A stretch of DNA of 64,000 nucleotides, taken from NCBI RefSeq assembly GCF_014651675.1, contig NZ_BMXI01000022.1, forward strand, positions 1-64,000. The letters run 5' to 3'. Positions within the stretch are counted from its first letter, which is position 1. The number at the start of each line of letters is the position of its first letter. The translations under genes and the position numbers were made by a program. Below the pieces are notes generated by a model that was not told where the DNA came from, made no database searches, and saw nothing but the letters and a program-made list of their open reading frames with translations. Below are positions 5,119 to 48,415 of this stretch, in pieces. The DNA comes from Roseibacillus persicicus. GTDB taxonomy: Bacteria > Verrucomicrobiota > Verrucomicrobiia > Verrucomicrobiales > Akkermansiaceae.

Positions 5119-5207
5119 GTGTCCCGAGAAGAGGGGACAGCAATTGCGAGTGTTTTGTTTGGTTGTTCAAGCAGTATTGGGGACACTCGGGACTTATCCA
5201 TATTAGA

Positions 5208-6692: not shown

Positions 6693-6713
6693 CAACAAGC
6701 GAACTCCAAGACT

Positions 6714-6737
6714 TTGCCACTGTGTTGATGGTGGCAA
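6714..6737. terminator. Hairpin between convergent sulfatase genes
   Basis: A perfect 7-bp stem (TTGCCAC at 6714-6720 with GTGGCAA at 6731-6737) sits between two convergent stops. It has no T-tract on either strand, so termination is only a guess. Confidence 0.3.
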
Positions 6738-6744
6738 TGACCGG

Positions 6745-19120: not shown

Positions 19121-19145
19121 GAGTTTGTTCAATTGCCTGAGTCTT

Positions 19146-19174
19146 GGAATACGACAAGTCCCCAAAAATTTGGG
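19146..19174. promoter_or_regulatory. Direct-repeat element (copy 1) and adjoining palindrome
   Basis: GGAATACGACAAGTC (19146-19160) is followed at once by CCCAAA-AA-TTTGGG (19161-19174), 25-55 bp before the start at 19120. A near-identical GGAATACGACTTGTC lies at 19275-19289. Confidence 0.4.
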
Positions 19175-27126: not shown

Positions 27127-28623
27127 CTATCCCTGCGGATTGTCGTGCCATTGCCATCGCGGGTCTCGCACGTAGGCGAGTGCTTCCTCGACCGTGAGAC
27201 CGCCTTGAGCTTTTCGCTTGTTGGCCTCCAAGTGCGCCCTCCAGATTTTACATTCTTCATCCGTGGGTTGATATGGTTTTTGGTGGGGGACCCGGTGGCC
27301 CAGGAGCATTACGAGATAGCCTTCGAGGCCAAAGTCGTTCTGAGTTGACTGGAGGCTGTAGCGGCAGAATCCAGTAGGTCCGTTCTCCCGGTAGAATTCC
27401 AGCAGTTCTTCAATTCCGGAGAGATCCGTCTCCTCCCGGCATCGGTCCCAGAAAGGGGTTTTCATCGCCGTATCCGGCTTGTAGTGGAGCCCCAGAAAGT
27501 CACGGATGTCCAACCAGGTTTCGTGGGTGACGCGGTTGTAAAGGTCGCGCATGGAAGGGCTGGGAGCCAGCTGGGAATGTTGGATAAAGTTGATCAAAGT
27601 CTGCACGTGGGAGCAGACGATCATGAGAGCGGTGGCCTCCAGAGGCTCGACGAAACCTCCCGCATTTCCAATCGCAACCACGTTGTCAACCCACATTCGC
27701 TGGTAGCAACCACTGCGAAACTTGACGATGCGGGGATCGTCCGGAACCTTGGGGTTCTTGGCGCGAAATTCGTTCGCAGCCTCCTCGTCGGAAATCATGT
27801 CCGAACAGTAGACGTAGCCTCGATTGATGAGGCGCTCATGTTCGATTTGCCAGCACCATCCCGTGCTCATTTGCTCGGAGGTGGTGTAGGGGAGGATCGG
27901 CTCTTCGGTGCGTTCCCACCCGCCCACTACAGCCCGATCGCAGAAGAGGGTCTTCTTGAAATCGAGGAAGGGCTCTTGCAATGCCTTTCCCAACAGTTCG
28001 CTCCGGAATCCACTGCAATCGATGAAATAATCACCCTCTATCAATCGGCCGTCCTCGAGCAGAATCGCCTTCAGTCCATTGTCGTTTCTTCTGCAGTCGT
28101 CGACACGTCCGTCGATGAATTCGACTCCGGAAGCAACCGCGATTTTTTCGAGAACCGCAACAAACTTTTCGTTTTCGATGTGAAAGGCATGCCAAGGCTG
28201 AATATCCGGGCATCCGTTGGCTTGAGCAGGGAACACCTTCCCCTGGTTCATCAAGGCTGACGAGAGATCCAAGTTGTCGAAGACCTCGTCGCAATAGAAG
28301 CCGTTCGGGAGGGGGAGTTGCGCCAATCGTGCGTCAAGTTGGGGCGCGAACGTGTAGTTGAAATGTTCTCGAGCTCCCCAGTTGAAGCGGATTCCCAGCT
28401 TCCAAGTTGGTTCAGCAAGCTCGTAGAAAGTCTTTCGGGGAATCCCGAGATAGTCAAAGAGGTGGCGGGGGAAATTAGGGGTCGTTCCTTCTCCTACTCC
28501 GATCACTCCGATGCTGGGGTCCCTCACCACGCTTACCTGAATCTGAGGTAGTTTGCGTCGAAAGGAGAGGGCGGCGATAAGGCCGGCGCTACCGGAACCG
28601 AGGACGACAAGATTTTTGATCAT
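27127..28623 (-). CDS. Tryptophan halogenase-like flavoprotein
   Basis: A 498-residue FAD protein of the flavin-dependent halogenase family. The start at 28623 (MIKNLVVLGSGSAG) places the FAD-binding GxGxxG loop at the N-terminus. GEGTTPNFP follows, and the Lys in PTWKLGIRFNW matches the catalytic Lys that captures hypohalous acid in PrnA-type enzymes. The signature W-x-W-x-I-P is W-C-W-Q-I-E here, with Glu for Pro, so this belongs to a divergent branch that may halogenate another substrate or act as a monooxygenase. A second flavin motif (GNAGGFVEPLEATALM) is intact. Neither a flavin reductase nor biosynthetic genes lie nearby. The family is clear; halogenation is unproven. Confidence 0.8.
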   Translation of the reverse strand: MIKNLVVLGSGSAGLIAALSFRRKLPQIQVSVVRDPSIGVIGVGEGTTPNFPRHLFDYLGIPRKTFYELAEPTWKLGIRFNWGAREHFNYTFAPQLDARLAQLPLPNGFYCDEVFDNLDLSSALMNQGKVFPAQANGCPDIQPWHAFHIENEKFVAVLEKIAVASGVEFIDGRVDDCRRNDNGLKAILLEDGRLIEGDYFIDCSGFRSELLGKALQEPFLDFKKTLFCDRAVVGGWERTEEPILPYTTSEQMSTGWCWQIEHERLINRGYVYCSDMISDEEAANEFRAKNPKVPDDPRIVKFRSGCYQRMWVDNVVAIGNAGGFVEPLEATALMIVCSHVQTLINFIQHSQLAPSPSMRDLYNRVTHETWLDIRDFLGLHYKPDTAMKTPFWDRCREETDLSGIEELLEFYRENGPTGFCRYSLQSTQNDFGLEGYLVMLLGHRVPHQKPYQPTDEECKIWRAHLEANKRKAQGGLTVEEALAYVRDPRWQWHDNPQG

Positions 28624-28673
28624 GCGTTTGTTAGTTTGAAGCGAGATGCCTGTGACGACAAGCATAGAAGAGA

Positions 28674-28710
28674 ACAAAGCCCACCGGAATGGTCGGCGGT
28701 GGGGCTTTGT
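28674..28710 (-). terminator. Rho-independent terminator
   Basis: A long stem (ACAAAGCCCACCG at 28674-28686 with 28697-28710, one bulge) around a ten-base loop, ending CTTTGTTCTC on the minus strand. It lies 60-95 bp past the PEP-CTERM stop at 28769 and before the halogenase start. Confidence 0.75.
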
Positions 28711-29841: not shown

Positions 29842-32800
29842 CTATTGTGTGACGCGGAAGAACGAGTCACCGTTGCCGTCGGGGTCGAGGTTGGCTGAGG
29901 CAATGGTGATTGTGCTGCCACTGATGGTGGCCGCAACCGCAGCCCAGTTGGTCAGATTGGTTGATTGCTCAACCGTCGCACCGGTGGCATCGCCCGCCAA
30001 TTGAATCTCGAAGTCTCCGAAGTTGTTGAACCCGGAGGATACGATCTCCAGAGTTGCGGGGCTTGCGCTGCCGAAGATGACCACCGTGAAGTCGTCCAGT
30101 TCCACAGTGCCAGGACCGGAACCCGCTCCGTCGTGTAGGCTGAAGACCCCCGCGTTGAGGTCGGCAGTGCCGTCCAAAAACACGGGCTGTGCGATGGGAG
30201 TGGCTGCATTCCCGTTGGTCGTGGCCGACCACACTCCACCAATTCGTTCGATAATGACGGTGAGATTCCCGTCGAACACGCCAGCCTCTCCTGCAGTTCC
30301 AAAGAAGGCATCGGCGTCATTGGTGCCGTTGGTGTTCACTCCCAGTGACTGGAAGGAACCCTGAATCGAAGACGAGCGCGTGAGTGCGGTGGTACTAGTT
30401 CCCACGTAGGCGCCAATTTGATCGAAGCTCGCGGTCGCGGGCAAACAGGCATAATGGGCGCGGATGCGGAAGTCCTCTGCTCCGGTAAAGCCGAGGCTGG
30501 ATAACTCGAGGCCGAAGGCTTCCAACACATCCATCCCAAGTTGCCCATTGATATCCGCTGGACTGCTGGTGATGGCGAGAGTGCTGTTCGCAATGTCCAG
30601 GTCAAGATTCGCATCCTGAGCCGCCAGAGCAGTGCCGGAGCCATCAAGTCGTGTGAAGGGCGTAGCCTCTCCTTCGAAGTCCAGAATCCCGCTCCCGGTT
30701 GCATCCATGCCCAGGAAGGTGACCGAGTCGGTCGTTCCATCACCGTTCACATCGCTCGCCGTGGAATTGATGTCGCGAGGGTCGGAGGTGGCTTGATACT
30801 CGGCCAAGTTGCTGTCGAAGTCTCCATCGGGGTCATCGTTGGCTCCGAATTCACTGAGCAAGGATGCTCCAAGAATGTTGATTTCCCAGGTGTCGGGAAG
30901 TCCATCGCCATCGCGGTCATCAAATTTCACCACGGGTTCCAAGGGGTTGGCTGGATTCGTCAGGCCAAAGAACTCGTCGACATCGCTGGAATTATCCTCG
31001 TCGAAGTCGCCCAAGCCGTCCCGGGAAAGGTCGCCGAAGAAATTGATTTCCCAAGCGTCACCCATTTCATCGGTATCACTGTCAGTGGCATCGGTTGGAT
31101 CCGTTGGGTCAGTGAAGGTGCCGCCCAGTTCGTCTGCGTCGGATTCAAAGTCCCCGTCGAAGTCGCCGGTCCCGTCACTGGTGGTGAGGTCGCCGAAGTA
31201 GAAGAGTTCGTCGTCATCCAGCAGGCCGTCGGCATCGCTGTCGTTCGGTGTGCTGGCACCATCGTTTGGATCTGTGCCGACAAGAAGTTCGTCGCGATTG
31301 CTCACGGAGTCATCATCGGAGTCGTCCAAGAGGTTCTCCGCGAGATTGCCGAAGTAGAACTGCTCGAACTGGTCGGGGAGACCATCCGAATCGGAGTCCG
31401 TCATGGAGATGCTGGCAGCGTCGGGTCCGAGATCATGCAAACTCTCCAATGCCCAAGGAAGAAGGCAGCCGTCGTAGATGCGGAACTCGTTGTAGCTAGC
31501 GCTTGCCGTGTTGTCCGCCCAGCGGGAGCGACCAAGAGCGGCCACCAGATCGTTCAACGAGGAAATCCGGGCGTTGATGGTAAAGCCGCCTTTCGCCGCT
31601 CCCAGATCCAGGGAGGAGGCTTCCGCACTATAGAAGGTCACCACAGAAAAATCCGGGTCTTCCGGATCGGGGCAGATGGTGACCGCGACGTGGTATTCTG
31701 TTCCCAGGGTGAAGGTTCCATGGATGTCGGGAGCGCTGGCATCAGCACCATTGGAGTCGGGGTCGTTGACGTCGTTGTACCACGAGCTTTGATTGGTGGC
31801 GTTGTCGGTGCCTCGGGTCCAAGCCATGAAGAGGCTTTCTGCATCGGTCGTTCCGGAATCATCGTGGAAAGAAAAGATTCTCGCCCAGTTCTGGATAGCG
31901 TTGTTAGTCGCCCACGTTTGGAGCGTTACAGCCGTGTTTTTCTCTGGGAGAAGATTACTACCCAACTGAATCCACTCGGAGTCAGCCTTGGCTCCGCCGA
32001 CCATCACTACTTGATTGGCACCCACGGCAGCTGTGTTGGTGGAGGTGGTGTCTCCCGCTTGGATGGTGGCGGTCACTCCTCCCACGGAGTCAGTGAGGTC
32101 CCCATTGAAGCTCCAGCGGTGCGCAGGAAGGGGGAAAGCAGGGGACCAGAGGCCCGTGCTCGGGTCTGAACCATGCTGATACTCTTCTAGGTTCGAAAAG
32201 TTGTCGGTATCGAAATCGCCGGAGTCATCTTGCGAGAGGTCGCCGAAATGCGCGATCTCGTAAGCATCTGGCAGTCCGTCGAAATCTGTATCGGTGAAGA
32301 CTGAGGCACTGGTTGGATCCTGAAATTCGTTAACCTCATCGACGTCGAGTTCGCAGTCGCCGTCGGTGTCTCCGGTTCCATCCGAATAGTCGAGAGACCC
32401 GAAATAGAGATTCTCATCCGCATCGAGCATTCCGTCGTCATCGACATCGAAGGGGTCGTCGCTGGAATCGGTCGGGTTGGTTCCCGCGATGAACTCTTCT
32501 CCGTTGGAGGCAAAGTCATTGTCGAAATTGTCGTCGTATCCCTGGCTCAAGTCGCCAAAGTTCGCGATTTCATAGTCATCGGGCAATCCGTCGTTATCGG
32601 AGTCATTGAGGATGACTTCGACTGTGATAGCAGAGCCAGTGTCCGCGAAATTGTAGACGAAGCCAACCTCAGAGTTTCCAATCGAAAAGTTGCTGAGGTC
32701 CCCGGAGAACGAGCCTGTGTATTCAAAGATTGTATAGGTGCCCTCTATCGTTGCTTTTGAGCCATAGAAGGCGGTGTCGTCGGGGACAAGATTCACCGTG

Positions 32801-34218
32801 ACAGAACTTCCTGCGGTCAGAGCGGTGGCTGTAATTTTATCGGCCATGTCGGTCTCCGCGATGTCGAGAACGACTGAAGTATTGTCGCCAAAGGTCAGGC
32901 TGGCCAAGGAAAGGGTGCCGAGTGCGTCGAAGGTCGGGTCTTCATCGGTGACTCCGATACTGCCGTTGGCGGGGATGATGATGCTTTCATTTGAAAAATC
33001 TCCTCCAAGTCCGATCCCACCCTCGCTGACGATGATATCTCCGGTGAAGGTGACGCCACCATCTCCGTCGCCAACGATATACAGTTGACCGGCTCCGGAT
33101 TTTGTCAGGTTGCCGACTCCGCTGAGTGGGACGTTCATTGTGACGTCGAATCCCTCGCTGTCGATGAAGGCACCGCCTGCCTGAATGTCGACGTTGACCC
33201 CGGTTCCGATGAAAGTTTCGTCATTCTGGGTAGCGTGGAGAGTGCCGCCATTGAGGTTGAGTTGAGCGGTTCCGCCGCCGACCCGGATGCGTGAGGTATG
33301 GAAATCGCCTCCGTTGAGATTATAGGTTCCGATGCTGTCGGCATTCTCGCCCAGAAAGGTTCCATAGTTGCCCGTTCCAGCCGTGCCATCAGTAATAGTG
33401 CCGCCGTTCTGGTTGACCGTTCCGTCGGCGCCACCGTTGGCACCGATGGTGAAAAAGGAGCCTGCGCCGACCTTGTTGATGACTGTTTCGTCTCCCGAGA
33501 CGTTCATGACCGCGTTGCCACTCACGTGTCCCACTACGAACCAGGAATTGGAGCTAATCGTTCCTCCCGTGACATCCAGTGTGTGGGTTCCACCTTCGCC
33601 CGCGACCCCAATGAGCAGCTGTCCTCCGGTTGAAATCGAGCCGCTATCGATGGATGAGTTGCCGCTACCATTCATGCGAATATTTCCAGAGACATCGATG
33701 ATACCGTCGTTGGTCACCTTGACAATTCCAGTGCCGCCTCCTTCATCGAGTCCGCTTCCTCCCACCGAACCTCCATTGACATTGAGGGTTCCGGTTCCAC
33801 CTCCTCTACCCAATCGGATATTGTTGTCTCCTACGAAAGAACCGCCGGAATTGACGTTGAGAGTACCAGCGCTTCCAGCTCCGTTCCCGACGAGGGTCCA
33901 GTTGCCCGAACCATCCAGCGACCCTCCGTCATTGATGTCCAGAACTCCTTCGCCACCCCCATTTCCAATGAACATATCTCCGCCTCCACCGTCTGGATCG
34001 AGGGTGTAGGCAGTGGTCAGGACGGGCGCGTGAAGGGTTCCGTCACTGACGTTGTTGATGGTCACATTTTCGGTGCCGTTGGGGACTCCGTTGTCCCAGT
34101 TGGCGGCGGTTGACCAGTCTGAACTGGTGCCGCCGGTCCATGTCGTTGCCATCGAGATGCTGGTGGAGCAAATGAGGCATCCTGCTCCATGCAGGAATGG
34201 TTTGATTGTTAGTTTCAT
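29842..34218 (-). CDS. Giant secreted beta-helix / calcium-repeat surface protein
   Basis: The start at 34218 gives a signal peptide (MKLTIKPFLHGAGCLIC...) and 1458 residues. The N-terminal ~500 residues are Gly-, Asn- and Thr-rich strand repeats of the autotransporter or pectin-lyase-like type (GGGTGTLNVNGGSV, LTKSGAGQLYIVGDGDGG). A run of DxDxDG thrombospondin type 3-like repeats follows (~590-740, each near YFGDLSxxDGxGDxD). A LamG-like lectin domain (~745-970), a second, longer run of DxDxDG repeats (~985-1250), another beta domain, and a tail ending SFFRVTQ complete it. No hydrolase motif is visible. The number of Asp-rich loops implies heavy calcium binding and a stiff, extended surface stalk (inference). 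Confidence 0.8.
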   Translation of the reverse strand: MKLTIKPFLHGAGCLICSTSISMATTWTGGTSSDWSTAANWDNGVPNGTENVTINNVSDGTLHAPVLTTAYTLDPDGGGGDMFIGNGGGEGVLDINDGGSLDGSGNWTLVGNGAGSAGTLNVNSGGSFVGDNNIRLGRGGGTGTLNVNGGSVGGSGLDEGGGTGIVKVTNDGIIDVSGNIRMNGSGNSSIDSGSISTGGQLLIGVAGEGGTHTLDVTGGTISSNSWFVVGHVSGNAVMNVSGDETVINKVGAGSFFTIGANGGADGTVNQNGGTITDGTAGTGNYGTFLGENADSIGTYNLNGGDFHTSRIRVGGGTAQLNLNGGTLHATQNDETFIGTGVNVDIQAGGAFIDSEGFDVTMNVPLSGVGNLTKSGAGQLYIVGDGDGGVTFTGDIIVSEGGIGLGGDFSNESIIIPANGSIGVTDEDPTFDALGTLSLASLTFGDNTSVVLDIAETDMADKITATALTAGSSVTVNLVPDDTAFYGSKATIEGTYTIFEYTGSFSGDLSNFSIGNSEVGFVYNFADTGSAITVEVILNDSDNDGLPDDYEIANFGDLSQGYDDNFDNDFASNGEEFIAGTNPTDSSDDPFDVDDDGMLDADENLYFGSLDYSDGTGDTDGDCELDVDEVNEFQDPTSASVFTDTDFDGLPDAYEIAHFGDLSQDDSGDFDTDNFSNLEEYQHGSDPSTGLWSPAFPLPAHRWSFNGDLTDSVGGVTATIQAGDTTSTNTAAVGANQVVMVGGAKADSEWIQLGSNLLPEKNTAVTLQTWATNNAIQNWARIFSFHDDSGTTDAESLFMAWTRGTDNATNQSSWYNDVNDPDSNGADASAPDIHGTFTLGTEYHVAVTICPDPEDPDFSVVTFYSAEASSLDLGAAKGGFTINARISSLNDLVAALGRSRWADNTASASYNEFRIYDGCLLPWALESLHDLGPDAASISMTDSDSDGLPDQFEQFYFGNLAENLLDDSDDDSVSNRDELLVGTDPNDGASTPNDSDADGLLDDDELFYFGDLTTSDGTGDFDGDFESDADELGGTFTDPTDPTDATDSDTDEMGDAWEINFFGDLSRDGLGDFDEDNSSDVDEFFGLTNPANPLEPVVKFDDRDGDGLPDTWEINILGASLLSEFGANDDPDGDFDSNLAEYQATSDPRDINSTASDVNGDGTTDSVTFLGMDATGSGILDFEGEATPFTRLDGSGTALAAQDANLDLDIANSTLAITSSPADINGQLGMDVLEAFGLELSSLGFTGAEDFRIRAHYACLPATASFDQIGAYVGTSTTALTRSSSIQGSFQSLGVNTNGTNDADAFFGTAGEAGVFDGNLTVIIERIGGVWSATTNGNAATPIAQPVFLDGTADLNAGVFSLHDGAGSGPGTVELDDFTVVIFGSASPATLEIVSSGFNNFGDFEIQLAGDATGATVEQSTNLTNWAAVAATISGSTITIASANLDPDGNGDSFFRVTQ

Positions 34219-34565
34219 AGGTTTTGTTTTTTTTGAAATCCGCGCTCTGTGTTGTGCCGGAGAGCGAGGCTTGCTTGATCCTGAAGTAGCAGTTTTCAGC
34301 GTTACCACTATGAGTAAGGTCTCCTTCATAAAATAGGTTTCACTCGACGTTATTGTGTAAAGATGCGCCATCCGGGTTTCGGTGGGTCTGACTGAGTATT
34401 TATTTTTTTCTAAGATAATCCCTACCTTTAGGCGTTCTTGGAGGGTCTATGGCTGTTTTAGGGATTTGTGTTTTGGTATTTTTGTGTTCTTGTTTTATCT
34501 CTAAAGGGCGGTTTGGTGCTCGCGGTTGTTCGGTGAGATGCCGTCGAGCGGTGAAGAGAAACGAG
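34219..34565. other. Divergent intergenic region between two giant surface-protein genes
   Basis: 347 bp, AT-rich in the middle. It holds a predicted plus-strand promoter (34390-34416) whose spacer and -10 recur at 57223-57243. A frame stays open upstream of 34566 but encodes no signal peptide in that position, so it is treated as 5' leader. Confidence 0.5.
34390..34416 (+). promoter_or_regulatory. Predicted promoter
   Basis: CTGACT, a 17-bp spacer, then TAAGAT (34411-34416): 4/6 matches to each sigma-70 hexamer. The stretch ATTTATTTTTTTCTAAGATA recurs with one extra T before the cytochrome gene at 57342. Confidence 0.4.
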
Positions 34566-37500
34566 ATGAAAAGCGCAAACAAAGTTCGAGATTTGCTGGT
34601 TCTTGCCGTAGCGGCAGGTTCCTCTTTGGCGCACGGCGACTTGGTTCACCGTTGGACTTTTGACGAGCCGGTCGGGTCAGCTCCGAGCGGCACGATCGTG
34701 GCCGATTTGATTGCCGGTGCAGAAGCGGTTGTGATCGGCGAGTGGCAGGCACAAGCGACCTTCACCGGAGAGGGAATTCGTTTGCCGGGGACTTCCAATG
34801 GAAATCATTCCCTCGGTTTCATGTCACCCTATCTCGACCTGCCCGATGGTCTCATTTCGTCAAAGGTGAACCTGACTATTGAAATTTGGGCAGCTCCTCA
34901 TTCAGTGACAAACTATGATCGCCTTTTCGATTTTGGTCGGTCGAATTTGACCCATGGACCCAATGCGGAACCGGGGGAAATCAACGACATCAATGGCCAA
35001 GGTGCGATTCCCGGAGCATCCAATGCAGACGACAATCTTTATTATTCCTTTGCAGTAGGAGATGACCCCAATGTCCAGCGGTTGGATGCGGTCGTTAATG
35101 ATGAACGGGGAAATCCCGCCTATCACCACGATGTCGCTCGGGCAACCAGTCTGGGGCAGACCTACCATTACGTGTGCACCTTCGAGGATGGAGTGGGCAC
35201 CTACGGGCAGCAGGGGGGCAGGTTGACTTGGTTCCGGGATGCCGAGCTAGTCTATTCTGCGGACGTGGACTTTCGCCTGAATGAGATGGAGGACGTGAAC
35301 AATTGGTTGGGACGATCGCAATACACGAACGATTGGAATGCGGATGCTGAGTATGTTGAAGTTCGGATCTGGGACCATGCGCTGAGCTCACAGGAGATTG
35401 CAAACAATTTCGTCAACGGTCCCGACTTTCTCCAAGATAGCGATAGTGATGATGACGGGCTTCTCGATGTGGCGTTCGAGGACGTGTATTTCGGGAATCA
35501 TGATGGCGTGGCGACTCCCTCTGAGCTGGCCCTCCACGATGGAAACGGCGACGCGGATGGGGATGGCTTTTCCAACTTGGAAGAGCAAATGATCGGCACT
35601 GATCCCACCGATCCGCAATCGCCCCCACCACTCCCGAATCCAGACCATCTTTGGACATTTACTTCCCAAGCTGATTCTGCGGTAGAGTCAGGATTAATAT
35701 TTCCTGATGAAGGGGGAGGAGACCGCAAAGTGACCTTGGTGGGGCAAGGGGGTGCGCTCGATGGGCGGCAGGTGATTTTACCAGGGAGCACGACAGGCAA
35801 TCAGCCTCTTGCCGGAATCGCAGCTTACCTGAACTTGGATAATGGAATTGTTTCGTCGTCGCCGAGTGTGACGTTCGAGGCATGGGCGACCCCTTTGTCG
35901 AACAAGACTTGGGCCAGGCTCTTTGACTTTGGTCGGACGGTGGAAACCAGTGGCCCGGGGGCGGAACCGGGTGAGGTCGTCGATGGCGTGGGGAATCCCG
36001 GCAACTACAGCGCGCATGATAATCTGAGCCTCACCTTCAATGTGGCGAATGACCTCAACCAGCAACAACTGGAGGGAGAGATTGATGACAACGGGCCAGT
36101 CTTCACATTCTCCACTGCTCCCACCATTCCTGGAACCGAGTATCATTACGTCTTCGTGGTCGAGGATGGGGTGGGAGAATTCGGGAGTGCTGGGATTCGC
36201 GTGAGTTGGTATCGCGATGGGGTCTTGCAGAATTTCGACGATTTCAATTTTCGTCTCGAGGACCTGGAGGACGTGAATAATTGGGTTGGACGCTCCATGT
36301 ATGGGGGAGATTCGAATGCTCATCTTGCTCTCAATGAACTCCGGATTTATCGCTCGGCTCTCGGTGAACAACAGGTTCAGGCGAGTGCTTTTTTGGGGCC
36401 GGATCCTACCAGTGGTCCGCCTGAACCCCCAGCCCCCGCGGTGATTCCGACCTTGCGCTGGGACTTCGATGTTTCCGCTGGTAATGCGGAGGAGGGGATG
36501 ACTTTTCTCGATGCCAGTTCGCGTGAAGAGTTGGTGGTGAAGGGGAATGGGGCTCTACTGAACGGTAGTGAGATTATTCTCCCCGGTGGCACGAACGGCG
36601 AGGAAAGCGCGGCAACAATCTCCGCATATCTCGAGCTGCCAAATGGCCTCATCTCTTCCTTTCGGGAGTTTACTATCGAAGGATGGATGACGCCTCTTTC
36701 TTCGCGCTTTTGGCAAAGAATTTGGGACTTCGGAAACTGCACGGAAACCCATGGTGCCGGAGCTTTGCCGGGAGAGATCGTGGATGATGCCGAGGCTCCA
36801 AATTTCTTTCAGGCCAACGATAATCTCTTTCTCTCCTGGAACATGCAGGGGACTTTGGGCGCTCATCGTCTTGGGGGCAAAATCAATGCCGGAGGGGAGA
36901 CGCAAGTGGATACGGATTTGTCGGGCACGACTTCCGTTGGGAGCGAATACCACTTTGTGATGACTGTCGAAGAAGGCGCCGGAAGCGCGGGTGCGGGCGG
37001 GTGTCGGGTGAGGTGGTATCGCGACAGTGTTTTTTCGGGGAGTATCGATTTGCCGTTTCGTTTGCAAGATATGGAAGATGTAAACAATTGGATTGGCCGT
37101 TCCAATTGGTCGCCTGACGAAAATTCCCATCTTTCGCTAAATGAGCTTCGGATCTATGATTCCGTGTTGAGTGCGCAAGAGGTGAAGACAAGCTTCCAAG
37201 ACGGTCCCAATACAGTGTTCGCACCGCCGGTAGCAGAGGATGATGCCGCCACACTACACGAAGGGCAGAAGGTGTTGCTTGATGTTTTGCGCAATGACTC
37301 AGGCAATCCTGACCCCACGACGGTCGCGGTGGTCTCGCCTCCTGTGCGGGGAAGTACTGAAGTTCAACCTGATGGGAAAATTCTTTATTCACATACCCAC
37401 GGGAGTGGCGCATTTGATTCCTTTACATATACGGTAGAAAACTTTGCAGGCGCTTCAGTGCCAGCTTCGGTGGAGCTCACAGTAACTCCTGACTTGCGCA

Positions 37501-40118
37501 TCACCAATGAGGCCTGGACCATGCCGGAGGAACTCCCTCCGCCGACTTGGACTTTGGAAGACGCGTTGCCGGGCTTGACCTTCGAGCGTCCGGTCTGCCT
37601 GACTAACGTTCCGGGGGATATCAATCAGATTTATGTCTGCGAACAGGAGGGCGTTATCAAACGAGTGGCAGATGTCACGGCGCAGGCACCAGTGGCGAAC
37701 AATTTTCTCGATCTGACGGCCTTAGGAACCGGCTTCGATGAAGGCCCCTTGCTTGCCGGTCAGCCCGAAAATGGATTGCTTGGTTTGGCCTTTCATCCGG
37801 ACTACGAGAACAACGGTTTTTTCTTTGTGGCCTATACGGTGAACGAAGGGGGAGACTACTTTCAAAGGGTATCAAGATTCTCTCGGGATGCCTCTGATTC
37901 CACGGTTGCGGATCCAAACAGCGAAGTCGTTCTCCTCCACATCGATGACTTTGGACTCAATCACAATGGGGGAGATCTTCACTTCAGCCCCCTTGATGGC
38001 TACCTCTACTATGCGACTGGAGACGGGCAAAATTCCTCGAGCGGACAGGCGCGTAGTCAGCAGATTGACGACGATTTTTACTCGGGGATTTTCCGTCTGG
38101 ATGTCGATAAGAGGCCTGGAAACCTAGCGCCCAACGCCCATCCTTCCATCCCGACCAATGGCAGTGGAGAAGCCGGTTTTTGGGTGCCGGTGGACAATCC
38201 TTTCGTTCACGCCAGTCTTGGTGGCGACTGGGATGGGATGTTCAATGGAATCGATTATTCGAGCTCATTGGGCACAATTCGCACTGAGTTCTGGGCAACT
38301 GGAATCCGTCACGCTTGGCGGATGTCGTTCGACGTGGAGACAGGCGAACTCTGGGTGGGCGATGTGGGACAGGTTCTCTATGAAGAGATCAATCGCATCG
38401 AGCGGGGCGGAAATTATGGGTGGGCCTATCGCGAGGGCGCTCATGATTTCAACGGGGCTCTCGGGGACGCTCCGGTCGGATTCAGTTCCATCGATCCAGT
38501 CTACGAGTATGTGCACACCGCCCAACCAGGGGATCCCAATTTCAAAGGGAATTCTGTAGTAGGAGGTTCGGTATATCGGGGGGCGAGCTATCCCTCGCTC
38601 GTGGGGAACTACGTTTTTTGCGATTCTATTTCGGGCCATGTTTGGAAAATGGATCTCGAGAGCGGGGCTGTTGAAAGGCTTACCGGCTTGCCGGGGGCTT
38701 ACGGGGTTTTCTCTTCCATGGGGACCGATCCAGCGACTCAAGACATCTTGTTTTGTGCTTATCTCGAGGGCAAAATTATGCGGTTGACCCTTGGCAGCGC
38801 AGACTCCCATGATTTCCCCCAGACTTTGAGTGATACAGGGTTGTTCGCTGACCTCGGCGAGCTCTCTCCTTCTCCAGGGCTTCTGCCTTATCAACCGAAT
38901 CTTCGTTTCTGGAGCGACCATGCGACCAAGAACCGGTGGTTTGGGATCCCTCATTCGGACAAACGGATGACTTGGACTCGCGAAGGTGCGTGGACTTATC
39001 CGTCGGGTATGGTCTGGGTGAAGCATTTTGAATTGGCGACTGAGCGCGGGAATGCGGCAACCAACAAACGCTTGGAGACTCGAGTTCTAGTGAAGAACGA
39101 AGAGGGTGCCTACGGGGTCACTTATCGCTGGAATGAGGAACAGACGGAGGCCTATCTGGTTCCCTCTTCGGGAGCGCAATTCGAGTTGGCAATCGATGAG
39201 AGCGGAGATGAAAGCGAACCTCATATCCAGACTTGGGAACTGCCAAGCCGAAGTGCCTGTATGACCTGCCATCAAGGGGACCCGCTCTCTTTCACCACAC
39301 GGCAGTTGAATCTTTCCCAAGAGGTCAACGGATTCTCTGGTAATCTCCTGACGCTGCTTGAGGCTGGTGGATACTTGTCCAATTCTCCTGATCCGTTAGA
39401 GACCTTGCCCTTTCATGTTCGTCCCGATGAGTTGCAATACTCTCTGGAGCAAAGGGTGCGATCCTATCTCTCGGTCAATTGCGCCTACTGTCATCAGGAT
39501 GGTGGGAGTGTGGGAGGATTGTGGGATGGAAGGGAGGCGCTCATGCTGGAGGAGACAGGGCTAATCAATAGGGCCCCGATAGTTGATGGGGGGGATGCGC
39601 GAAACAAATATGTCGTTCCTGGTGAGGTGGCTCACAGTGTTCTTCTCCACCGCATTGCGGCCACCCCTCCCTTCACCCGTATGCCTCCTTTATCGACCTC
39701 AGAGCTCGACGAAGAGGCGATCGCCCTGGTAACGGAATGGATTCAGTCCGGTCTGCCCCAGAACCGCCTTTACCCCGACTGGGCTGGCCCGAACGGTTAT
39801 CAACTCACTGGCACGCGAACGGACGATGACGATGGTGACGGACGGAGTAACTATGATGAATTTCTATTCGGAAGCAACCCGCTCACACCGGATTCTGAAG
39901 CTTTGCTAAGTCTGACAGGCCATGGCGAGCTGACTTTTAGACGACAGCCCTTCCGTCGCTACACAGTTGAGACCAGCTCGGACCTGTCTGGTTGGGAGAG
40001 CTGGAATGCGTTGCCAAATACAGATTCATTTTTCGATACCAGCTTTCTGGAAGTCACACCATTTGACACCAGTAACGAAGCAAGGCGCTTCTGGCGTTTG
40101 CAGGTTCGAGAGCCATAA
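34566..40118 (+). CDS. Giant surface dehydrogenase with two heme c motifs and LamG domains
   Basis: The start at 34566 opens a signal peptide (MKSANKVRDLLVLAVAAG..., cleaved near SLAHG), giving 1850 residues. Three LamG-like domains (~25-290, ~365-620, ~650-875) each contain a near-identical motif (DVNNWLGRS, DVNNWVGRS, DVNNWIGRS). Then come a cadherin-like Ig domain (~885-975) and, from ~995, a glucose/sorbosone dehydrogenase-type propeller (GLLGLAFHPDYENNGFFFVAYT, FGLNHNGGDLHFSPLDGYLYYATGDG, EEINRIERGGNYGWAYREG). C1565-x-x-C-H and C1639-x-x-C-H follow, the second beside typical c-type landmarks. A DDDGDGRSNYDEF repeat and a tail ending RFWRLQVREP finish it. It probably oxidises a sugar bound through the LamG domains and passes electrons to its own hemes, perhaps at the cell surface (inference). 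Confidence 0.85.
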   Translation: MKSANKVRDLLVLAVAAGSSLAHGDLVHRWTFDEPVGSAPSGTIVADLIAGAEAVVIGEWQAQATFTGEGIRLPGTSNGNHSLGFMSPYLDLPDGLISSKVNLTIEIWAAPHSVTNYDRLFDFGRSNLTHGPNAEPGEINDINGQGAIPGASNADDNLYYSFAVGDDPNVQRLDAVVNDERGNPAYHHDVARATSLGQTYHYVCTFEDGVGTYGQQGGRLTWFRDAELVYSADVDFRLNEMEDVNNWLGRSQYTNDWNADAEYVEVRIWDHALSSQEIANNFVNGPDFLQDSDSDDDGLLDVAFEDVYFGNHDGVATPSELALHDGNGDADGDGFSNLEEQMIGTDPTDPQSPPPLPNPDHLWTFTSQADSAVESGLIFPDEGGGDRKVTLVGQGGALDGRQVILPGSTTGNQPLAGIAAYLNLDNGIVSSSPSVTFEAWATPLSNKTWARLFDFGRTVETSGPGAEPGEVVDGVGNPGNYSAHDNLSLTFNVANDLNQQQLEGEIDDNGPVFTFSTAPTIPGTEYHYVFVVEDGVGEFGSAGIRVSWYRDGVLQNFDDFNFRLEDLEDVNNWVGRSMYGGDSNAHLALNELRIYRSALGEQQVQASAFLGPDPTSGPPEPPAPAVIPTLRWDFDVSAGNAEEGMTFLDASSREELVVKGNGALLNGSEIILPGGTNGEESAATISAYLELPNGLISSFREFTIEGWMTPLSSRFWQRIWDFGNCTETHGAGALPGEIVDDAEAPNFFQANDNLFLSWNMQGTLGAHRLGGKINAGGETQVDTDLSGTTSVGSEYHFVMTVEEGAGSAGAGGCRVRWYRDSVFSGSIDLPFRLQDMEDVNNWIGRSNWSPDENSHLSLNELRIYDSVLSAQEVKTSFQDGPNTVFAPPVAEDDAATLHEGQKVLLDVLRNDSGNPDPTTVAVVSPPVRGSTEVQPDGKILYSHTHGSGAFDSFTYTVENFAGASVPASVELTVTPDLRITNEAWTMPEELPPPTWTLEDALPGLTFERPVCLTNVPGDINQIYVCEQEGVIKRVADVTAQAPVANNFLDLTALGTGFDEGPLLAGQPENGLLGLAFHPDYENNGFFFVAYTVNEGGDYFQRVSRFSRDASDSTVADPNSEVVLLHIDDFGLNHNGGDLHFSPLDGYLYYATGDGQNSSSGQARSQQIDDDFYSGIFRLDVDKRPGNLAPNAHPSIPTNGSGEAGFWVPVDNPFVHASLGGDWDGMFNGIDYSSSLGTIRTEFWATGIRHAWRMSFDVETGELWVGDVGQVLYEEINRIERGGNYGWAYREGAHDFNGALGDAPVGFSSIDPVYEYVHTAQPGDPNFKGNSVVGGSVYRGASYPSLVGNYVFCDSISGHVWKMDLESGAVERLTGLPGAYGVFSSMGTDPATQDILFCAYLEGKIMRLTLGSADSHDFPQTLSDTGLFADLGELSPSPGLLPYQPNLRFWSDHATKNRWFGIPHSDKRMTWTREGAWTYPSGMVWVKHFELATERGNAATNKRLETRVLVKNEEGAYGVTYRWNEEQTEAYLVPSSGAQFELAIDESGDESEPHIQTWELPSRSACMTCHQGDPLSFTTRQLNLSQEVNGFSGNLLTLLEAGGYLSNSPDPLETLPFHVRPDELQYSLEQRVRSYLSVNCAYCHQDGGSVGGLWDGREALMLEETGLINRAPIVDGGDARNKYVVPGEVAHSVLLHRIAATPPFTRMPPLSTSELDEEAIALVTEWIQSGLPQNRLYPDWAGPNGYQLTGTRTDDDDGDGRSNYDEFLFGSNPLTPDSEALLSLTGHGELTFRRQPFRRYTVETSSDLSGWESWNALPNTDSFFDTSFLEVTPFDTSNEARRFWRLQVREP

Positions 40119-40139: not shown

Positions 40140-41444
40140 ATGAAAATAACACATTGGGTCCATCTTGTATGGTTGTTGGTAGCTGGGGGAGCTTTTCTCG
40201 CAGGGCGAAGTTTGTCGGGCCCCGCTTCAGGAGAACAGTCCGCCCAGACCGCTCCCACTCGCTCAACGGCTGCACGACAGCAGTCGACATCTTCATTGAG
40301 TCGAAGCGATAGTTCGGTTGGGGGTGGTGAGTCGAATGCATCTTCGGGTGAGTGGATCCCCGGATCGGGCAAAGAGTTGAATCCCGAGGCGATGGCGGAA
40401 GCTTTGACCACCATACTCGGTGAGCCTGATCCTCTGAAGCGTCAGCGGGAGTTTGCGACCTTGCTGGAATCGTTGACGAAGGAAAATGCGGCAGCAGCAG
40501 TGGAAGCTTTCGAAAAAATGCCGCGGTCGGGTTGGAGTTATGGGCATGAGTTTACCTTGCTGACCAATGCCTGGGGCAGGCTCGATGGTCCTGCCGCTAC
40601 CGAGTTTGCCATGGCGCGTGAAGGCCGTGGACGTGAGTGGGCTCTGGGTTCGGTGATGTCCGGTTGGGCCTCCGAAGATCCTGAGGCGGCCAGGCAGTTT
40701 GTTGCTGGAATCGAAGGGGAAGGGGAGCGGCACACCCTGATGCGGGGATTGGTTACCGGAACGTCCCAACGCGATGTGAATGCTGCCACGGCTCTCGTTT
40801 TGGAGTTGGAAGATGAAGGACGCGCGCAGGATTTGATGGGTCATGTGGCCCGACAGCAATTGATGCAGGGTTTCGAGCTAGCGTCTTCTTGGGCCGATTC
40901 GCTCCCGGAGGGGCAGGTGAAGGGGAGTGCCTTGCATTCATTGGCGAATGGTTTTGTCAGAAGCGATCCTGAGCAAGCAGCGCTTTGGATTGGACAGTAT
41001 GCGAATGATGAGCACGCCACTGGCGCGGTCGGTGAAGTTGCAGAAGAATGGGCAGAGCGGGAGCCCGAATCCGCAGTGAGCTGGGCTGCCAGTTTACCCG
41101 AAGGGGAAGGCCGCAATCGCGCCATGTCGGAGACGATGTGGGAGTGGGCGGGGCGTGACATCGTCGCGGCTGGCGAGTTCTTGGCAAGCTCGCCGCAGGG
41201 AGAAGATTTGGACCATGCCGCAGGTTCTTATGCTCGTCGGGTTGTTCGGGAGGAGCCGGAATCCGCTATGGAGTGGGCCTTGGCCATCGGCAACGACGAG
41301 GTGCGCCGGGATGCAATCATCAACACTGCCCGGGGATGGATTGAGCATCACCCTGACTCTGGTCAGGAGTGGCTCTCCGGTTCGAATCTTCCTGAAGATG
41401 TCGTGGCCGAGATTAACCGCCCCCGCGACCGACGTCGCCGCTAG
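40140..41444 (+). CDS. Exported alpha-helical repeat protein
   Basis: A 434-residue protein with an N-terminal signal or anchor helix (MKITHWVHLVWLLVAGGAFLAG) and a low-complexity Ser/Gln/Thr linker to ~residue 75. From there ~30-40-residue helical repeats run to the end, most with an E-x-A-x-x-W-A core and a LPEGxxR turn (SWADSLPEGQVKGSALHSL, SWAASLPEGEGRNRAMSET). Such repeat proteins are common in Verrucomicrobia and probably mediate protein-protein contacts; there is no enzymatic motif. It starts 21 bp after the giant dehydrogenase gene and 12-27 bp before the metzincin-type gene, so the three look like one operon. Confidence 0.7.
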   Translation: MKITHWVHLVWLLVAGGAFLAGRSLSGPASGEQSAQTAPTRSTAARQQSTSSLSRSDSSVGGGESNASSGEWIPGSGKELNPEAMAEALTTILGEPDPLKRQREFATLLESLTKENAAAAVEAFEKMPRSGWSYGHEFTLLTNAWGRLDGPAATEFAMAREGRGREWALGSVMSGWASEDPEAARQFVAGIEGEGERHTLMRGLVTGTSQRDVNAATALVLELEDEGRAQDLMGHVARQQLMQGFELASSWADSLPEGQVKGSALHSLANGFVRSDPEQAALWIGQYANDEHATGAVGEVAEEWAEREPESAVSWAASLPEGEGRNRAMSETMWEWAGRDIVAAGEFLASSPQGEDLDHAAGSYARRVVREEPESAMEWALAIGNDEVRRDAIINTARGWIEHHPDSGQEWLSGSNLPEDVVAEINRPRDRRRR

Positions 41445-41471
41445 AGAAGTGAGAGGATGAGAAATGAGTCT

Positions 41472-42245
41472 ATGAAGAGTTCTATACAAAGATGCGGGGC
41501 GATGGCGTGTTTCGCTTTCTTGATTGGCCAAGACGGAAGGGCACAAGTTGTTCGGGAGTGGACTTCTGCCGACGGGCGCACCCTGCAAGGGGCCTATCTC
41601 GAGGGTGACGAGGAGAAAGTGAAGTTGAGAAAACGAGGCGGGACTGTGGTGGAGATTCCCTTGAAGCAGCTTTCGAAAGAAGACCGGGAGCTGGTTTTGG
41701 AGAAAGTGGAAGCGGAGCAAGAAAGAGCAAGGGAAGCCAATGGCGAGCTGGAAAAGGAAAAGCTCTTAGCCGGCCCCTTTACCTATCAACTATCGGATGG
41801 ACATGAAAATTGGCCCGAGGACCGAAAGAAGCGAATCGTGGACGCCATGGAAGCAGCGGTGATTTACATGAACAAACACGGTAAGTTTAAGAAGCATGTC
41901 TATGCCAACAACAGCCCGGGAACACCCACCGCTGATGCGAACTTTGACGGTTGGATCAACTGGGGGGGAAGCATTAGCCGACGAGTCGCGCTACACGAGT
42001 TTTCCCACACTTTGGGAGTTGGCACTCATCCCAATTGGAGGAAGAACATTAAGGATGGCAAGTGGACCGGCGAACATGCACTCACCCAGCTTCGGGAGTT
42101 CGATGGTCCCGACGCTGTTCTGTATGCGGATCGCCAGCATTTTTGGCCCTATGGTTTGAATTTTGACAACGAGTCTTCCGAAGTCAACGACCTGCGCTTT
42201 GTCAAAATGCTTGAGGCTCTCCGCAAAGATATGGGGCTGGAGTGA
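41472..42245 (+). CDS. Secreted metzincin-type zinc peptidase with SHD1 domain
   Basis: A 257-residue protein from the ATG at 41472, which gives a signal peptide ending DGRAQ; an in-frame ATG at 41457 directly after GAGAGG is an alternative. Residues ~25-75 form an SHD1-like domain (REWTSADGRTLQGAYL, IPLKQLSKEDREL), a small module common in the PVC group. The catalytic half carries H175-E-x-x-H179-x-x-G-x-x-H185 (HEFSHTLGVGTH), the complete metzincin zinc site, with a downstream Met in the C-terminal region as possible Met-turn. Its operon position after the giant surface dehydrogenase suggests it may trim or mature exported proteins. It could equally be a general secreted protease. Confidence 0.75.
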   Translation: MKSSIQRCGAMACFAFLIGQDGRAQVVREWTSADGRTLQGAYLEGDEEKVKLRKRGGTVVEIPLKQLSKEDRELVLEKVEAEQERAREANGELEKEKLLAGPFTYQLSDGHENWPEDRKKRIVDAMEAAVIYMNKHGKFKKHVYANNSPGTPTADANFDGWINWGGSISRRVALHEFSHTLGVGTHPNWRKNIKDGKWTGEHALTQLREFDGPDAVLYADRQHFWPYGLNFDNESSEVNDLRFVKMLEALRKDMGLE

Positions 42246-44369: not shown

Positions 44370-45668
44370 CTACAGGTCAAACAAGCTGGGAAGCCAGAGG
44401 CTAAGCTGAGGGAAGAAGGTGACGAGGAGCAGAACAAGAATCATCATGGCCAACAATGGGAGGAGGGGGCGCACCACTTCCGTAACGTTGACCTCTGCGA
44501 TCGACGAGCCGATGAAAAGCAGCGAGCCGACTGGAGGGGTGCAGAGACCGATACAGAGATTCAGAACCATGATCATACCGAACTGAATCGGATCAATTCC
44601 GAGAGGGATGACGACCGGTAGGAATATCGGGGTGAAGATAAGAAGTGCCGGCGTCATGTCCATGAAGGTGCCCACTACCAACAGAATGAGGTTGATGATG
44701 AGTAGGATGACAATGGGATTATCCGATAACGAAAGTAGGGCTGCGCTGATTGCCTGAGGCAGGTGAATATAGGCCATCAGCCAAGACATTGCGACCGAAG
44801 CAGCGATGAGAACCAAGACCATGGAAGTGGTGCGCGCGGCTTGTAACAGGACCATGGGGATATCCCGCCAGGCGATGTCACGATAGATCGCAACCGCTAG
44901 GATTGCACTATAGAGCACGGCAACACCGGCAGCCTCCGTGGGCGTGAACCAACCCGCGATGATGCCACCCATAACAAGGAAAAGCAGAAGTAGACTGGGC
45001 GCCGCAGCAAAGAAGCTCTTGGCGATTTCCCTAAAGCCAACGCGAGCCTCCGTGGGATAGCCCCGGCGCTTGGCATAGAAGAAGGCGGCCGCCATGAGGG
45101 ATAGTCCGACGAGTATGCCTGGTATATATCCGGCAAGGAAAAGGCTTCCGATGGAAAGGCCTCCGGCTGCAAGCGAGTAGACGATGAGCCCGTTGCTGGG
45201 GGGGATGAGAAGCCCGGTGGTGGAAGCTGTTAGATTGGTGGCGGCGCAGAAGGCGCGCTCGTAGCCAGCCTTGGTCATGCGGCCGGTCATGGCTCCTCCT
45301 ACGGCAGAAGCCGCAGCTCCAGCGCTGCCGGAAATGGCTCCGAAAATCATGGAGGCGGTAATGTTGACGAAGGACAGTCCACCCGGGAGCCAGCCGATGC
45401 AGTTCTGAGCAAAACGGATCAGCCGGCCCGCGATGCCCGGCGAGTTCATGAATTGTCCGGCCAGGATGAAGAGGGGAATTGCCAGGAGGACAAAGCTATC
45501 GAGGCCGCTCGCCACCCGTTGTGCGATGGTGGTCAGGGCTGGATCGAGAGGAAGAAAGACACACAGGGTCAGGGTCGTTGAGCCGATAATGGAAAAGGCC
45601 ACTGGAACGCCCAGGATCAGCATGATGGCGAAGCTGAGGGACAGGACAAGGACGGGAAAGATTTCCAT
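44370..45668 (-). CDS. dctM: TRAP transporter large permease (DctM)
   Basis: A 432-residue membrane protein with about twelve hydrophobic segments, the size and layout of the DctM subunit. It opens with the typical VLSLSFAIMLILGVPVAFSI helix and contains conserved DctM stretches such as MFIFGAISGSAGAAASAVG-like and GWFTPTEAAGVAVLYS. It forms the sodium-coupled channel of a tripartite transporter and works with the DctQ and DctP proteins encoded directly upstream (3-bp gap to dctQ). It is the last gene of the minus-strand uronate operon. The transported compound is probably a uronate or aldonate, judged from UxuA in the same operon. Confidence 0.93.
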   Translation of the reverse strand: MEIFPVLVLSLSFAIMLILGVPVAFSIIGSTTLTLCVFLPLDPALTTIAQRVASGLDSFVLLAIPLFILAGQFMNSPGIAGRLIRFAQNCIGWLPGGLSFVNITASMIFGAISGSAGAAASAVGGAMTGRMTKAGYERAFCAATNLTASTTGLLIPPSNGLIVYSLAAGGLSIGSLFLAGYIPGILVGLSLMAAAFFYAKRRGYPTEARVGFREIAKSFFAAAPSLLLLFLVMGGIIAGWFTPTEAAGVAVLYSAILAVAIYRDIAWRDIPMVLLQAARTTSMVLVLIAASVAMSWLMAYIHLPQAISAALLSLSDNPIVILLIINLILLVVGTFMDMTPALLIFTPIFLPVVIPLGIDPIQFGMIMVLNLCIGLCTPPVGSLLFIGSSIAEVNVTEVVRPLLPLLAMMILVLLLVTFFPQLSLWLPSLFDL

Positions 45669-45671
45669 GAT

Positions 45672-46166
45672 TCAGTCGGTGACGGTTTCGGGGTGGGAGT
45701 GTGGGGAGGTCATTTGCTGAAGACAGGAGATGACCATGATGAGACCGCTGGCAGGAATGACGGCGTAGACCCAGATCATCCCGATGCCGAGCGCGGGGCT
45801 AGTCTGCTTCAGCTCGTGGGCGAGATAGGCCAAACGGGCCCCGCCAAAGACGAAGACGCTGAGAGCAATGAGGAGTACGAAGGCGGGAATGAGACGTTCC
45901 AGTTGAGCGCGGTGTGCGGGCCGGGTCTTCTGAAGAAAGTAGTCCATGCGAAGGTGGAAACCTTCTCCGACTCCAAAAGCCGCGCCGAGGCATCCCAACC
46001 AGATGAGAATGAATCGAGCGAGTTCCTCGGTCCAAACGCTGGGGTCACCTACAAAGAAGCGAGTGAAGATCTGCCAGAGAACGTCCAGAGCCATAGCTGC
46101 CATGAGGGCAACGAGCAAATGCCGGAGGCCCTTTTGTAAGGAATTGTCGAGGGTCTGCAGATTCAT
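45672..46166 (-). CDS. dctQ: TRAP transporter small permease (DctQ)
   Basis: A 164-residue protein with four hydrophobic helices and the family signature around residues 30-75 (ALDVLWQIFTRFFVGDPSVWTEELARFILIW begins this stretch; key features are the W-T-E-E motif and F-G-V-G-E). It joins DctM in the inner membrane to form the TRAP permease. Its start overlaps the dctP stop by four bases (ATGA), indicating translational coupling. Weakly conserved except for these motifs, but size, topology and position make the call firm. Confidence 0.9.
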   Translation of the reverse strand: MNLQTLDNSLQKGLRHLLVALMAAMALDVLWQIFTRFFVGDPSVWTEELARFILIWLGCLGAAFGVGEGFHLRMDYFLQKTRPAHRAQLERLIPAFVLLIALSVFVFGGARLAYLAHELKQTSPALGIGMIWVYAVIPASGLIMVISCLQQMTSPHSHPETVTD

Positions 46167-47188: not shown

Positions 47189-47197
47189 AGCGAGTAG

Positions 47198-48412: not shown

Positions 48413-48415
48413 GAG

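What the first reader, a model, noticed from the sequence alone, without database searches (positions are those of the whole stretch)
34566..40118. Giant dehydrogenase carrying its own lectin domains and two heme c sites
One 1850-residue protein has three LamG domains, a cadherin-like Ig domain, a sorbosone-dehydrogenase propeller, two CxxCH motifs (residues 1565 and 1639) and the common C-terminal tail. If the tail means surface display, this would be a polysaccharide-bound, self-wired extracellular oxidoreductase.
Basis: partly seen in the sequence, partly recalled or inferred. Interest (0 to 1): 0.65.

Follow-up and report, generated by a model that had tools for sequence, protein, structure and literature searches.

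The report
Lectin-headed propeller–diheme protein of Verrucomicrobia
A large protein of a Verrucomicrobium, probably exported, joins three lectin-like domains, a sugar-dehydrogenase-like propeller and a two-heme cytochrome; it belongs to a family with many uncharacterised relatives, and its sugar oxidation and surface location remain unproven.

Summary
Window 34566-40118 (+) encodes 1850 residues: signal-like N-terminus, three LamG domains, an Ig domain, a GSDH-type propeller, CxxCH at 1565 and 1639, and a C-terminal tail. The two motifs lie in a recognised diheme domain (TIGR03806, below its cut-off) and are identical in 67 of 67 aligned relatives. The propeller–diheme core recurs: 71 of the 78 kept loci hold it whole, 72 of 78 with titles of Verrucomicrobia. 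The three-LamG form occurs in 14 other contigs; other relatives carry fewer LamG or other heads. So it is one member of a modular family.

Covalent heme is likely. Sugar oxidation is uncertain: the catalytic Arg and probable catalytic His of PQQ glucose dehydrogenase are kept, but the last-blade PQQ-binding Arg seem absent, human HHIP is nearest by sequence, and PqqC was found in 0 of 38 related genomes. Surface display rests on a tail common in this genome without a known sorting match. Closest known kinds are fungal CcPDH and the bacterial Cbp2D/Teredinibacter redox proteins. A GH39 gene and uronate genes lie nearby.

The parts
34566..40118 (+). Whole gene: 1850-residue modular protein (alternative start at 34449)
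34566..34631 (+). Signal-peptide-like N-terminus (first 22 residues), read by eye, no predictor run
34626..35417 (+). LamG 1 (about residues 21-284)
35634..36407 (+). LamG 2 (about residues 357-614)
36444..37217 (+). LamG 3 (about residues 627-884)
37224..37481 (+). Ig domain, Big_9 / cadherin-like (887-972)
37563..38804 (+). GSDH/HHIP-type propeller (about 1000-1413); Arg1248 aligns with the catalytic Arg of sGDH, His1133 probably with the catalytic His
38817..39749 (+). Diheme c domain, TIGR03806-like (1418-1728)
39258..39272 (+). Heme c motif 1, CMTCH (1565-1569)
39480..39494 (+). Heme c motif 2, CAYCH (1639-1643)
39681..39683 (+). Met1706, 67 of 67, likely distal ligand of heme 2 (role inferred)
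39750..40115 (+). TSP3-like stretch plus common C-terminal tail (1729-1850)
40140..41444 (+). Next gene, 434 aa, 21 bases downstream, possibly same transcript; relatives near propeller-diheme genes in L150 and L067/L151 (L067 and L151 are one contig)
41457..42245 (+). 262-aa SHD1 protein with HExxH; relative directly downstream of the three-LamG gene in L145
42287..43948 (-). GH39 glycosidase; also near relatives in L120/L050 (one contig), L097 and L049

Best explanation
It is an exported modular redox protein. The three LamG domains hold it on a glycan (inferred). The GSDH-type propeller oxidises a sugar or uronic acid, free or at a chain end (inferred; cofactor perhaps scavenged PQQ or another quinone). 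Electrons pass to the two c-type hemes of the fused diheme domain (heme attachment strongly predicted, transfer inferred) and on to an acceptor that is not known. The tail may retain it at the outer membrane (inferred, weak). The neighbouring GH39 and uronate genes would use the products (inferred from position only).
For: Domains. Both CxxCH motifs and Met1706 identical in 67 of 67; 67 of 67 match TIGR03806 and 65 of 67 match TIGR03606 at E 1e-5. Propeller model (mean pLDDT 88.9) aligns with sugar dehydrogenases 3a9g Z 37.1, 2ism 36.6, 2g8s 35.7, sGDH 1qbi 33.6 and AA12 6h7t 29.5. Catalytic Arg 67 of 67, probable catalytic His 65 of 67, calcium-loop Gly 67 of 67. Cytochrome c assembly family at two places over cut-off. 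Lectin-like heads recur: LamG of this type in 27 of 63 uncut rows, PA14/GLEYA and GH115_C once each among ten other heads; a second protein of the genome with the diheme part carries CBM6 and CBM35. GH39 near relatives in three distinct contigs; TRAP transporter, UxuA and an SDR in the window.
Against: No conserved Arg at the last-blade place that binds PQQ in sGDH (the place is partly recalled, Arg408 and Lys377 named in passages of PMC6881789). HHIP, recalled as not an enzyme, is nearest by sequence (5.6e-42, next 3a9g 3.1e-21, sGDH 8.2e-20), though fold scores tie (HHIP 36.7, 3a9g 37.1). PqqC in 0 of 38 genomes, with a control that rang; PqqE over cut-off in 0 of 38. The probable catalytic His is lost in 2 of 67 rows, one of them (L096) near the three-LamG clade. 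In Teredinibacter a domain pair whose nearest matches were annotated as such dehydrogenases bound no PQQ and oxidised no glucose (passages of PMC10916295). Many heads are not LamG of this type (36 of 63), and eight of ten other heads showed no clear glycan domain. GH39 was found in 4 of 120 loci, three distinct contigs; DctM and DctP in 0 of 120; five neighbours each of L120 and L136 held no uronate gene.
Confidence: 0.42

Rival explanations
1. The propeller is a binding scaffold, not an enzyme. The protein is a glycan-attached diheme electron carrier or relay.
For: HHIP nearest by sequence; last-blade Arg not conserved; PqqC in 0 of 38 genomes; Teredinibacter precedent.
Against: His1133 in 65 of 67, Arg1248 in 67 of 67 and the GDVG loop are kept, whereas HHIP has His in place of the Arg in the printed alignment.
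Confidence: 0.33
2. A periplasmic sugar dehydrogenase acting on imported oligosaccharides; the tail has no surface role.
For: The tail matched no solved structure with E under 0.001; SprA gave no match, but no control rang either; TRAP transporter genes are close by.
Against: Lectin-like head, large size and a tail shared with many other proteins of the genome fit an outside location better; this is inference.
Confidence: 0.17
3. An electron donor to lytic polysaccharide monooxygenases, as fungal CcPDH can be.
For: Architecture resembles CcPDH, which drives LPMOs (PMC5960967, title and start of abstract in a listing).
Against: LPMO_10 was not found in the own genome and in only 1 of 38 genomes, while 23 of 58 genomes show a row spanning the core (my count; other LPMO families were not searched).
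Confidence: 0.04

Closest known systems
SO2930 family diheme c-type cytochrome (TIGR03806)
   Same: Residues 1418-1728 match the model nearly end to end, both CxxCH kept
   Different: 203.7 bits, below the 313.3 cut-off; here fused to a propeller and a lectin-like head
Glucose/sorbosone dehydrogenases (Pfam GSDH; sGDH, Asd)
   Same: Propeller fold, catalytic Arg, probable catalytic His, calcium-loop Gly
   Different: Last-blade Arg seem absent; fused to hemes; 50 of 434.55 bits for TIGR03606
Hedgehog-interacting protein (HHIP)
   Same: Nearest solved propeller by sequence
   Different: Animal protein; the catalytic Arg is His in the alignment; no heme domain (recalled)
Coprinopsis cinerea pyranose dehydrogenase CcPDH (AA8-AA12-CBM1)
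   Same: Carbohydrate-binding module, PQQ propeller and heme domain in one chain (listing and passages)
   Different: Fungal, b-type heme, CBM1, drives LPMOs
Cbp2D (Cellvibrio) and TERTU_3803/2913 (Teredinibacter)
   Same: Large bacterial proteins with signal peptides that join c-type heme domains to CBMs or a propeller-like domain pair (passages)
   Different: Other heme domains (X183, X132) and other CBMs (CBM2, CBM10)
PVC-type heme-binding CxxCH protein (TIGR02604)
   Same: Heme-binding family named for Planctomycetes/Verrucomicrobia
   Different: Only 2 of 67 relatives touch this model

Membership tests
SO2930 family diheme cytochrome (TIGR03806) | Near full-length match to the domain model | tested here: met
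   1418-1728 over model 2-313 of 314, E 3.7e-60
SO2930 family diheme cytochrome (TIGR03806) | Score over the curated cut-off | tested here: not met
   203.7 against 313.3 bits; treated as a relative, not filed as a member
SO2930 family diheme cytochrome (TIGR03806) | Two CxxCH motifs | tested here: met
   1565 and 1639; 67 of 67 aligned rows
SO2930 family diheme cytochrome (TIGR03806) | Covalent heme c in the protein | not testable with these tools
   needs heme stain or spectrum
GSDH / PQQ sugar dehydrogenase | Pfam GSDH over gathering score | tested here: met
   86.2 bits against 25
GSDH / PQQ sugar dehydrogenase | Catalytic Arg | tested here: met
   Arg1248 aligned with sGDH Arg228, 67 of 67
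GSDH / PQQ sugar dehydrogenase | Catalytic His | tested here: inconclusive
   His1133 in 65 of 67; its match to sGDH His144 is by offset of the ranges, that alignment was not printed
GSDH / PQQ sugar dehydrogenase | Basic residues that hold the PQQ carboxylates | tested here: inconclusive
   Arg1338 basic in 67 of 67, perhaps at the Lys377 place; no conserved Arg at the 406/408 place; mapping partly recalled
GSDH / PQQ sugar dehydrogenase | PQQ bound and sugar oxidised | not testable with these tools
   needs an assay
glucose/sorbosone PQQ dehydrogenase TIGR03606 | Score over cut-off | tested here: not met
   50 against 434.55 bits
AA12 pyranose dehydrogenase | AA12 fold relation | tested here: inconclusive
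   6h7t Z 29.5 over 306 residues, below the bacterial GSDH and HHIP rows
T9SS surface proteins | SprA in the genome | tested here: inconclusive
   no match, and no control genome rang

The most novel reading that the evidence does not exclude
A widespread system of saccharide-tethered electron conduits in Verrucomicrobia: one constant propeller–diheme engine with interchangeable heads, many of them glycan-binding, which oxidises polysaccharide ends outside the cell with a scavenged or non-PQQ cofactor and sends the electrons to the cell or to an external acceptor.
Probability: 0.12. Interest if true: 0.72.

Novelty: new variant of a known kind. Interest (0 to 1): 0.4.

Why it matters
A 2024 paper states that no bacterial enzyme playing the part of fungal cellobiose dehydrogenase has been identified (passage of PMC10916295). 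A family found whole in 71 of 78 kept loci, which joins a sugar-dehydrogenase fold and two hemes in one chain and often a lectin-like head, is a clear candidate that can be tested. If the propeller proves inactive, many proteins that match PQQ sugar dehydrogenase models (65 of 67 here) would be misnamed.

Tried and rejected
LPMO electron donor: LPMO_10 not found in the own genome, found in 1 of 38 genomes; other LPMO families were not searched.

T9SS sorting: SprA gave nothing, but no control rang, so this says nothing. The tail model (mean pLDDT 90.1) had no PDB match with E under 0.001.

Solved relative of the diheme domain: the window's domain alone gave only a match at E 1.3. The family profile touched FoxE at 4.8e-6 for the whole chain, but no single stretch passed; that FoxE is a two-heme iron oxidase is recalled, and a paper search on it was seen as a listing only (18 found, 5 listed). 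The fold search covers only the propeller, so the diheme fold is untested.

Conserved neighbourhood: beside 14 three-LamG relatives and the window, no gene family other than the protein itself recurs in more than 3 of 15 records at E 1e-15. DctM and DctP were found in 0 of 120 loci; UxuA was not searched in them. Five neighbours each of L120 and L136 held no uronate gene.

Chance and artefact: about 0.0015 CxxCH expected; an assembly artefact is unlikely because 14 other contigs show the same domain order.

Literature searches (open-licence library): SO2930 (1 paper, listing); sorbosone dehydrogenase, LamG, cytochrome, Verrucomicrobi, at least three of four (none); glucose sorbosone dehydrogenase with Verrucomicrobia (none); Verrucomicrobi, PQQ-dependent, LamG, polysaccharide (none); Verrucomicrobi with C-terminal sorting, secretion, surface (6, listing); Planctomycet, giant, cytochrome, sorbosone, domain (none). 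AA12 (34 found, 10 listed) and Cbp2D (9) gave the precedents. Papers opened, passages only: PMC6881789, PMC6881810, PMC10916295, PMC12542752.

Full report
OBSERVATION. The frame 34566-40118 (+) is open for 1850 residues; the opposite frame is not. Pfam finds three Laminin_G_3 stretches, Big_9/Cadherin_4 at 887-972, GSDH with its best stretch at 1008-1165, and weak TSP3 and cytochrome c matches below cut-off. NCBIfam places the SO2930 diheme cytochrome domain at 1418-1728, E 3.7e-60, but under its cut-off. An ATG at 34449 behind GGAGG would lengthen the protein by 39 residues. The start at 34566 gives a signal-like N-terminus by eye; no predictor was run.

HOW COMMON. A search with residues 1000-1740 found matches at E 1e-10 or less in 52 of 58 genomes, the own one included; many rows match the propeller alone. 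By my count of the printed, cut list, 23 of 58 show a row from query residue 94 or earlier to 728 or later. Of these 71 hold a full core, 76 rows in all. By title 72 of 78 are Verrucomicrobia; the others are single records called Gammaproteobacteria, Myxococcota, KSB1 and Planctomycetota, and two without a group. Because only the best were kept, near kin are over-represented. The Roseibacillus ishigakijimensis record L120 and contig C105 of G001, given as the same genus as the window, have the same length of 71174 bases, so the window is most likely from Roseibacillus or a close genus.

ARCHITECTURE. Relatives were scanned with a LamG profile built from the window's own three domains, so LamG of other types may be missed. 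The three-LamG order was found in 14 other contigs (L136, L081, L085, L082, L083, L102, L084, L145, L147, L086, L043, L044, L089, L120; L045 and L050 are copies of two of these). Alignment A3 has 67 rows: the 76 full-core rows less 10 near copies that I left out, plus the window. Of these, 63 were not cut at the start: 13 have three LamG, 2 two, 12 one, 36 none. In the tree 11 of the 13 three-LamG rows form one clade with 100% SH-aLRT support, and the label needs 2 changes against 12.0 in shuffles (quick method, no bootstrap, 12 open forks). In 13 proteins LamG 1, 2 and 3 are each most like their counterpart in other species (51, 61 and 57% on average, against 43-50% across positions), so the triplet is older than the split of these species. 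Ten other N-terminal regions, picked by hand for variety, show DMFA2_C with further domains, PA14/GLEYA, GH115_C, TSP3, or nothing but Big_9; two show nothing. Big_9 is present in 8 of the 10. A second protein of the own genome with the diheme part carries CBM6, CBM35 and FG-GAP domains. The picture is one constant redox core with changing heads, some of them lectin-like.

HEME. Both CxxCH motifs and Met1706 are identical in 67 of 67 rows; His1487 is kept in 65 of 67 and could be the sixth ligand of heme 1. Ligand roles are inferred. The cytochrome c assembly family PF01578 is present at two places, both over cut-off.

PROPELLER. The predicted core (mean pLDDT 88.9, pTM 0.67) aligns over residues 1-413 with sugar dehydrogenases and HHIP at tied Z (37.1 and 36.7). 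By sequence HHIP is clearly nearest. Arg1248 aligns with sGDH Arg228 and Gly1268 with Gly247; both are invariant in the 67 rows. These sGDH residues are named in passages of PMC6881810. The partner of Asn229 is His in this protein; Asn stands there in 51 of 67 rows. His1133, kept in 65 of 67, is the likely match of His144, by offset only. Passages of PMC6881789 name Arg408 and Lys377 as PQQ ligands in sGDH. Arg1338, basic in 67 of 67, may stand for Lys377; I see no conserved Arg at the 406/408 place. I mapped these from recalled sGDH sequence, so this point is soft. The free-standing GSDH of this genome, 33% identical, also seems to end without them.

COFACTOR SUPPLY. PqqC was found in 0 of 38 genomes; no control rang there, but the same model rang on pSymB at 428.2 bits and again not in the own genome. 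PqqE: 37 of 38 genomes have weak matches, none over cut-off, and all 14 controls ring in the same weak way. PQQ would have to come from outside, as it must for fungi and E. coli, which do not make it (passages of PMC6881810), or another cofactor is used. In Teredinibacter a domain pair whose nearest matches were annotated as PQQ dehydrogenases bound no PQQ (passages of PMC10916295).

LOCATION. The tail has a confident small beta fold without a strong PDB match. Its model matches 87 places in the genome, 41 of them to the end of the model; many others cover mainly the TSP3-like part. In the window the genes 65-2185 and 16454-19165 end with it. This supports a common C-terminal tail but says nothing about its function.

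NEIGHBOURS. Two genes follow closely on the same strand (434 and 262 aa). GH39 lies next, in the opposite direction, and also near relatives in three distinct contigs: R. ishigakijimensis 73%, L097 65%, L049 64% identity (4 of 120 loci, two of them one contig). Beyond it are TRAP transporter genes, UxuA and an SDR. This would fit uronic-acid sugars as substrate, but DctM and DctP were found near none of the 120 loci.

VERDICT. As a mechanism, a diheme redox protein with a lectin-like head is likely; active sugar oxidation is somewhat under even odds; surface display is a guess. The kind is known in outline from fungi and from gammaproteobacteria; this version, with LamG heads and an SO2930-type diheme, was not found by the paper searches listed under Tried and rejected.

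Noticed in passing
window 44370-49234 (-): Uronate-use genes: TRAP DctM and DctP, UxuA mannonate dehydratase and an SDR, next to GH39.
   Followed up: partly
window 21563-25024 (-): ThuA, DUF7133, a weak CBM_4_9 match and cytochrome c in one 1153-residue protein.
   Followed up: no
L039:1286-7033 (-), own genome contig C10: 1916-residue open frame with the diheme part, Big_9, FG-GAP/UnbV, CBM6 and CBM35 domains.
   Followed up: partly
window 41457-42245 (+): SHD1 protein with HEFSH, protease-like by motif only; a relative follows the three-LamG gene in L145.
   Followed up: no
window 40140-41444 (+): 434-residue protein without Pfam match at 0.01; relatives lie near propeller–diheme genes in L150 and L067/L151.
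   Followed up: no
window 29842-34371 (-): 1509-residue divergent neighbour without Pfam match at 0.01, but with stretches similar to LamG and TSP3 parts of relatives.
   Followed up: no
L102:1-8951: A one-LamG (cut at the contig start) and a three-LamG version lie in tandem on one contig.
   Followed up: no
window 5163-8148: Two sulfatases in opposite directions, which would fit use of sulfated polysaccharides.
   Followed up: no
window 57342-58397 (+): Protein with a C-terminal cytochrome c domain just before a DUF6807 gene.
   Followed up: no
window 27127-28677 (-): Tryptophan-halogenase family protein, E 5.7e-99.
   Followed up: no
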